Shown: positions 31,604 through 32,035 of the stretch, in pieces | How the letters are laid out: every line of letters begins with the position of its first letter | Numbering within the stretch: position 1 is the stretch's first letter | Source of the DNA: Alistipes sp. | GTDB lineage: Bacteria > Bacteroidota > Bacteroidia > Bacteroidales > Rikenellaceae | Assembly: GCA_022511345.1 (NCBI GenBank) | Contig: JAFLRR010000001.1 | Coordinates: 124,001 to 188,000 of the forward strand | DNA: 64,000 nucleotides | Direction: 5' to 3' | Program-made: the position numbers and the translations under genes | The notes under the pieces: model-generated | Seen by the model: only the letters and a program-made list of their open reading frames with translations | What the model was told of the DNA's origin: nothing | The model's database searches: none

Positions 31604-31866
31604 AACGCGGTCGTTAAAATGATTAAAATTTTACGGCTGCAGATTTTGCCTTTAGGCGGAAAAATACATACGCGGCGAAAACGAAACTTGCAAATAAAAA
31701 TGTTGTAAAAATATCACCCGGCAAAATAGGCCGAATGATGAACCGATGTCGAAACATTTACGGTGTAGATATGTCGAAAAAGATATTTACAACTGTTTAC
31801 AATTTTTGAAAACGACAGAAAAGCAATTATTTGTAAAGAATGGAAAAGTAACATGTCGATGAAAAG

Positions 31867-31875
31867 TGTCGATAA
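31867..31875 (-). promoter_or_regulatory. DnaA-box-like site TGTCGATAA (reverse complement of TTATCGACA)
   Basis: One mismatch to TTATCCACA; inverted relative to the tandem pair at 31892-31909. Confidence 0.6.
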
Positions 31876-31891
31876 ATTTATTTCAAAATAG

Positions 31892-31909
31892 TTATCGACA
31901 TTATCGACA
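31892..31909 (+). promoter_or_regulatory. Two abutting DnaA-box-like sites TTATCGACA-TTATCGACA
   Basis: Perfect tandem 9-mers immediately before the AT-rich stretch. Confidence 0.65.
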
Positions 31910-32035
31910 GCGATTATTCTTCTTATTTTTTATAATTTAATTTTAATAAAGAAATAAAAAGAAGAAAAAAGCGTTGTTAAAAACGGAGTCAGTTCGACCC
32001 GCCGGTGCAATGGCTTCAGAAATGGCTGAAGATTT

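What the first reader, a model, noticed from the sequence alone, without database searches (positions are those of the whole stretch)
31604..32035. Candidate chromosomal replication origin between mrp and nadA, with no dnaA nearby
Sequence: a 432-bp gap, the longest AT-rich stretch I noticed here, holds TGTCGATAA (31867-31875) facing two abutting TTATCGACA boxes (31892-31909), then an almost pure A/T stretch at 31911-31971, giving the box-cluster-plus-unwinding-element layout of a bacterial oriC. Hand-counted 60-nt lines in genes on both strands are mostly C>G on the + strand to the left (polA, kbl, sppA, M13, pgk) and mostly G>C to the right (carB, mnmG, pheS, recJ, TPR gene). A C-rich to G-rich switch 5'->3' marks an origin, not a terminus. 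galE and parts of mrp are exceptions. Knowledge: mnmG/gidA and parS sites are often origin-proximal, and both lie within 10 kb. Inference: this is oriC, separated from dnaA.
Basis: partly seen in the sequence, partly recalled or inferred. Interest (0 to 1): 0.85.

Follow-up and report, generated by a model that had tools for sequence, protein, structure and literature searches.

The report
Alistipes replication origin beside nadA
The 432-bp gap between mrp and nadA is almost certainly where this gut bacterium starts copying its chromosome; dnaA lies elsewhere, as is usual in this phylum, and the DNA-opening element is conserved and uses an A-rich variant of a motif known from other bacteria.

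Summary
The window is from an Alistipes (Bacteroidota) draft genome. The gap holds the genome's only three-box TTATCGACA cluster. In a complete Alistipes relative (G128, 3,377,718 bp) the cumulative GC-skew minimum is at 1,153,807, about 0.4 kb from the same mrp-nadA gap at about 1,154,210-1,154,624. dnaA there is 1.36 Mb away. A profile built from 52 Rikenellaceae gaps has one strong hit in the own genome. In Bacteroidales its five best hits outside the own genome all lie directly upstream of nadA, and in two of those families the skew minimum falls at or near that spot (0 and about 8 kb away). A single parS lies 7 kb away in both Alistipes genomes. An oriC far from dnaA is already reported as common in Bacteroidetes, so the site is a new member of a known kind. 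The most novel part: trios start with A rather than G, while the two DnaA residues reading that G in B. subtilis are replaced across Bacteroidales (co-adaptation inferred).

The parts
31604..32035 (.). oriC: intergenic gap between mrp and nadA
   Evidence: conserved gap of about 400 bp, unique profile hit, at the skew minimum in a complete relative
31747..31780 (-). conserved block of weaker DnaA-box-like sites (TGTCGAAAC 31747-31755, TGTAGATAT 31764-31772, TGTCGAAAA 31772-31780)
   Evidence: conserved columns, but sites with up to 2 mismatches are not enriched over the rest of the window
31854..31862 (-). near-match DnaA box TGTCGATGA (1 mismatch)
31867..31875 (-). DnaA box TGTCGATAA, facing the tandem pair
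31892..31900 (+). DnaA box 1 of the tandem pair, TTATCGACA
31901..31909 (+). DnaA box 2 of the tandem pair, TTATCGACA; T, A and C at 31904, 31907 and 31908 invariant in 57 gaps
31910..31913 (+). 4-nt GC spacer (GCGA); same length in 52 of 57 relatives
31914..31928 (-). five DnaA-trios: TTA TTC TTC TTA TTT on the box strand, i.e. 3'-AAT AAG AAG AAT AAA-5' on the opposite strand
   Evidence: positions 1 and 2 of each unit strongly conserved T, position 3 variable; 28 of 57 gaps have 5 or more units against about 1.6% of shuffles
31911..31971 (.). AT-rich DNA unwinding element (89% A+T), ending in a conserved A-rich arm around 31949-31968
30527..31603 (+). mrp (ApbC/NBP35-type P-loop ATPase), left neighbour
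   Evidence: PF10609, PF01883
32036..32962 (+). nadA (quinolinate synthase), right neighbour; this linkage to the origin extends to other Bacteroidales families
39231..39246 (.). parS TGTTCCACGTGGAACA; the only site with at most 2 mismatches to the parS consensus in the genome, 7 kb from oriC here and in G128

Best explanation
This is the chromosomal replication origin (oriC) of an Alistipes species. Proposed mechanism: DnaA, made from a distant locus, binds the tandem TTATCGACA boxes at 31892-31909, helped by the opposed box at 31867 and weaker boxes at 31747-31780. From box 2 it steps over the 4-nt GC spacer and polymerises on one strand along the A-first trios (31914 onward), stretching and opening the AT-rich element so that helicase can load. 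Replication then runs both ways. parS 7 kb away marks the origin for ParB-type segregation. Shown here: position, conservation, skew, box/spacer/trio anatomy, parS. Inferred: DnaA binding, strand opening, helicase loading and use in the cell.
For: Cumulative GC-skew minimum of a complete Alistipes chromosome at 1,153,807, gap at about 1,154,210-1,154,624. Local skew minimum 0.8 kb from the gap in the own contig. Unique three-box cluster. Profile of 52 gaps: own genome 58.9 bits at this locus, next place elsewhere 15.5 bits. In the order Bacteroidales the five best hits outside the own genome (E below 2e-5), and 10 of 49 genomes with a hit, lie within about 100 bp upstream of nadA, in eight families besides its own. 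Skew minima in two of these families: G272 at 322,534 with the element at 322,495-322,574; G287 at 221,685 with the element at 213,309-213,390. Fixed 4-nt spacer and 3-nt periodic conservation after box 2, matching the published BUS rules (PMC8287927) and the capture of the first two bases of each trio (PMC10721633). Only one parS per genome, 7 kb away in both. Gene pieces swapped from one side of the gap to the other between G000 and G128, as expected around an origin.
Against: No experiment. The own genome is a 21-contig draft, so its whole-chromosome skew could not be drawn, and the contig's absolute minimum (-1567) is at its far end, slightly below the one at the gap (-1483). The G128 minimum was located with 24% sampling plus a dense zoom that has two 5-kb holes. 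The skew of G139 is noisy, though its sampled minimum brackets nadA. G287 is off by about 8 kb. Not every nadA locus in the set has mrp and this element upstream. Exact TTATCGACA is missing from several Alistipes gaps, where TTATCAACA-like boxes stand in its place.
Confidence: 0.95

Rival explanations
1. A DnaA-titration or DnaA-reactivation cluster (like datA or DARS of E. coli), not the start site itself.
For: A DnaA-box cluster away from dnaA would look similar at first sight.
Against: Such loci do not sit at the skew minimum and do not carry a spacer plus trio array beside the boxes.
Confidence: 0.03
2. Only the nadA promoter and leader: an AT-rich regulatory region conserved because of NAD-pathway control.
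For: nadA must have a promoter here; promoter-like matches at 31600-31629 and 31774-31803, barely above chance.
Against: The conserved columns are the boxes, spacer and trios rather than a promoter; no RNA family match; skew minimum. The two functions may coexist.
Confidence: 0.01
3. The real origin is beside dnaA or elsewhere and the skew switch here reflects gene orientation or rearrangement.
For: Skew in this genus is weak and noisy, and the contig has another deep skew low at its end.
Against: In G128 dnaA is at 3.168 Mb, on the opposite side of the chromosome from the skew minimum; on C15 no skew minimum at dnaA; the coincidence repeats in other families.
Confidence: 0.01

Closest known systems
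Bacteroidetes oriC away from dnaA (Prevotella intermedia OMA14 and DoriC predictions)
   Same: Box cluster at a skew transition, dnaA not nearby; PMC4755523 states that oriC is commonly far from dnaA in Bacteroidetes.
   Different: Different species. I found no paper in the held library that names the mrp-nadA or nadA-proximal location; DoriC itself could not be consulted.
Basal unwinding system (BUS) of Bacillus subtilis oriC
   Same: Tandem DnaA boxes, a short GC spacer (4 nt), then trios on the opposite strand in the same orientation (PMC8287927, PMC10721633).
   Different: Trios here are 3'-AAN-5' instead of the preferred 3'-GAT-5'; in B. subtilis, changing all six trios to 3'-AA-5' impaired initiation. 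The guanine-contacting residues R202 and E228 are I and A here.
E. coli oriC (gidA-mioC)
   Same: Box cluster plus AT-rich unwinding element; mnmG (gidA) is origin-proximal, about 7 kb away.
   Different: Neighbour genes differ; box TTATCGACA rather than TTATCCACA. IHF, Fis and GATC features were not examined.

Membership tests
bacterial chromosomal oriC | lies at the cumulative GC-skew minimum of the chromosome | tested here: met
   Complete relative: minimum 1,153,807 beside the same gap; local minimum in own contig. Own whole chromosome not testable (draft).
bacterial chromosomal oriC | cluster of DnaA boxes | tested here: met
   Three exact boxes in 43 bp, unique in the genome
bacterial chromosomal oriC | AT-rich unwinding element next to the boxes | tested here: met
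   31911-31971, 89% A+T; most AT-rich 300-bp window of the contig
bacterial chromosomal oriC | single copy, conserved at the same place in relatives | tested here: met
bacterial chromosomal oriC | replication starts there in cells; supports autonomous replication; binds DnaA | not testable with these tools
   needs read depth from growing cells, plasmid assay or footprinting
DnaA basal unwinding system (BUS) | DnaA box or tandem boxes followed within 16 bp by at least three NAN trios read 3'-5' | tested here: met
   tandem boxes, 4-nt spacer, five 3'-AAN-5' units; rule from PMC8287927
DnaA basal unwinding system (BUS) | G at trio position 1 (3'-GAT-5' consensus, the most frequent form rather than a requirement) | tested here: not met
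   position 1 is A (T on the box strand) in 89-100% of 57 gaps for trios 1-5
DnaA basal unwinding system (BUS) | strand separation by cognate DnaA in vitro | not testable with these tools
   biochemical assay needed
origin-proximal parS | parS palindrome near oriC | tested here: met
   only one site with at most 2 mismatches per genome, 7 kb from the gap in G000 and G128; ParB itself was not searched

The most novel reading that the evidence does not exclude
Bacteroidales origins use a re-coded unwinding element: trios begin with A (3'-AAN-5'), and DnaA has changed its single-strand pocket to match. The two B. subtilis residues that bind the trio guanine, R202 and E228, are I and A in Rikenellaceae and mostly V/I/L and V/I/T in 29 DnaAs from other Bacteroidales families, while the phosphate-contacting lysine K222 and the arginine finger R264 are kept. 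The initiator and its single-strand code would then have changed together in this lineage.
Probability: 0.4. Interest if true: 0.6.

Novelty: new member of a known kind. Interest (0 to 1): 0.42.

Why it matters
It gives an exact, conserved origin for a common gut genus, useful for growth-rate estimates from read depth (which need the origin position), for origin-based plasmids, and for orienting genomes in which dnaA is a misleading landmark (in G128 it lies 1.36 Mb from the origin). The nadA-upstream position is a simple marker for oriC in part of the Bacteroidales. The A-first trios with an altered DnaA pocket make the single-strand recognition model from B. subtilis testable in a distant phylum.

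Tried and rejected
dnaA-side origin: no skew minimum on C15 near dnaA. Box enrichment at up to 2 mismatches: not significant, so not used. RNA element in the gap: none. Profile search at phylum level: weak scattered hits, not interpreted. In the complete order member G271 the best profile hit (E = 0.0016) is not upstream of nadA, so the nadA rule is not claimed for all Bacteroidales. The skew of G139 was too noisy to count as more than consistent. Pfam was run on antisense ORFs for two neighbours (36069-39203 and 27952-29028), giving no hits; metG and ilvE on the + strand were recognised from the translation only.

Full report
Where it is. The window is positions 124001-188000 of contig C1 of a 1.95-Mb, 21-contig draft genome. 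The closest named NadA relatives are all Alistipes. The gap lies between mrp (30527-31603) and nadA (32036-32962), both on the + strand and both confirmed by Pfam.

Checking the observation. The boxes and the AT-rich stretch are at the stated coordinates. TTATCGACA occurs 50 times in the whole genome and only here as a cluster of three; random placement of 50 sites gives such a triple in 5 of 200,000 simulations. Sites with at most one mismatch are 5 in the gap against 0.32 expected. Sites with up to two mismatches are not enriched, so the looser boxes upstream rest on conservation alone. The skew switch is real; the local cumulative minimum of the contig is at window 30818, 0.8 kb left of the gap. 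The contig's right end (about 215-249 kb) has a second skew low that is slightly deeper. Some of the few G128-matched segments in that end map to the left arm of the relative, which suggests rearrangement or misassembly there (inference).

Whole-chromosome test. Genome G128 of the same genus is a single 3,377,718-bp contig. Forty stretches of 20 kb put the cumulative GC-skew minimum between 1.115 and 1.200 Mb and the maximum near 2.99-3.07 Mb. A dense zoom puts the minimum at 1,153,807; nadA begins near 1,154,624 and the mrp-nadA gap covers about 1,154,210-1,154,624 (estimated). dnaA is at 3,167,896, 1.36 Mb from the gap by the shorter way round. A second relative, G139, has noisy skew; its sampled minimum brackets nadA.

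Conservation. In most Alistipes the gap is kept at about 350-430 bp and 55-78% A+T, with boxes at matching positions. An alignment of 57 gaps shows the tandem boxes, the next few bases and the AT-rich element as the most conserved parts. A sequence-only profile of 52 gaps (R1) hits the own genome once strongly, 58.9 bits; the next place elsewhere scores 15.5. Across 149 Bacteroidales genomes the five best hits outside the own genome (E below 2e-5), and 10 of the 49 genomes with a hit, are directly upstream of nadA, in eight families besides Rikenellaceae. Outside Rikenellaceae the mrp neighbour was not detected in these loci. In two of these families I drew the skew of the contig: G272 has its minimum at 322,534, inside the predicted element (322,495-322,574); G287 has it at 221,685, about 8 kb from the element. 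So a nadA-upstream origin is not a peculiarity of this species. It is not universal in the order: in the complete genome G271 the best hit is elsewhere.

Anatomy and mechanism. After box 2 comes a spacer that starts the repeat at the same offset in 52 of 57 gaps, 4 nt. Then comes a repeat of three: on the box strand T is 72-100% at positions 1 and 2 of five successive units (31914-31928) and position 3 varies. 28 of 57 gaps have at least five uninterrupted units against about 1.6% of shuffles. On the opposite strand this reads 3'-AAN-5'. This is the layout of the basal unwinding system described for B. subtilis and predicted in most bacterial origins: tandem boxes, about 4 bp of GC-rich spacer, then trios with a fixed middle adenine (PMC8287927). 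In the B. subtilis cryo-EM structure the first two bases of each trio are captured and the third faces away (PMC10721633), which fits the conservation pattern here: two fixed, one free. The mechanism (DnaA anchored on the boxes, polymerising on the trio strand and opening the AT-rich element) is therefore inferred from anatomy and homology, not shown.

What may be new. The trio consensus elsewhere is 3'-GAT-5', and in B. subtilis an origin with all six trios changed to 3'-AA-5' initiated poorly (PMC10721633). In this genome and its relatives all trios are A-first, also in the nadA-upstream elements of G253, G175, G204, G285 and mostly G272 and G287. In the DnaA of this genome the residues matching the guanine-binding R202 and E228 of B. 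subtilis are I and A. R202 is I in all 119 Rikenellaceae-type homologues examined and E228 is A in 118; in 29 DnaAs from other Bacteroidales families they are V/I/L (27 of 29) and V/I/T/S (29 of 29). K222 and the arginine finger R264 are kept. A co-adapted A-reading pocket is a reasonable hypothesis. It rests on sequence correspondence only, and lineage-wide drift of the pocket with AT-rich origins is not excluded. The supplement of PMC8287927 might already show an A-first logo for Bacteroidetes; I could not open it.

Further support. A parS palindrome TGTTCCACGTGGAACA is the only site with at most 2 mismatches to the parS consensus in each of G000 and G128, 7 kb to the right of the gap in both, with the gene block nadA, S46 peptidase, metG, ilvE, parS, mnmG kept. 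Several segments on one side of the gap in G000 are on the other side in G128, the usual sign of inversions around an origin.

What is already known. PMC4755523 states that in Bacteroidetes oriC is commonly far from dnaA, citing DoriC. Complete Alistipes genomes are probably in DoriC (from memory, not tested). No paper in the held library was found that links nadA and oriC in this phylum or discusses DnaA-trios in Bacteroidetes; subscription papers and database entries are not covered.

Verdict.

Noticed in passing
window 21244-21596 (- strand): Bacterial RNase P RNA (class A), 224.9 bits, the only RNA family match above threshold in the window.
   Followed up: no
window 31915-31982 (- strand): The origin profile also matches the opposite strand of the unwinding element (18.8 bits): the right arm (AAATAAAAAGAAGAA) roughly mirrors the trio array, so trio-like units may exist on both strands. 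Role unknown.
   Followed up: partly
G000 contig C1 215-249 kb (outside the window): GC skew turns negative again and reaches a second low; some of the few segments matched there map to the left arm of G128 (positions 606 and 935-937 kb). Rearrangement or misassembly.
   Followed up: partly
L001 (DnaA of this genome) and P0002-P0120: All Rikenellaceae-type DnaAs have A and Q where B. subtilis has N187 and I190 in the single-strand-binding motif, unlike most other Bacteroidales.
   Followed up: partly
G128 C1:3167896-3168381: dnaA lies 1.36 Mb from the origin and only about 0.1-0.2 Mb from the sampled skew maximum, so it is terminus-side in this genome.
   Followed up: no
L277 (G247:C624): A Bacteroidales draft genome carries a second dnaA whose single-strand-binding motif looks proteobacterial; probably contamination of that assembly.
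   Followed up: no
G000 contig C1 about 120542-121147 (outside the window): A second long AT-rich stretch (69% over 432 bp) without a box cluster; not examined.
   Followed up: no
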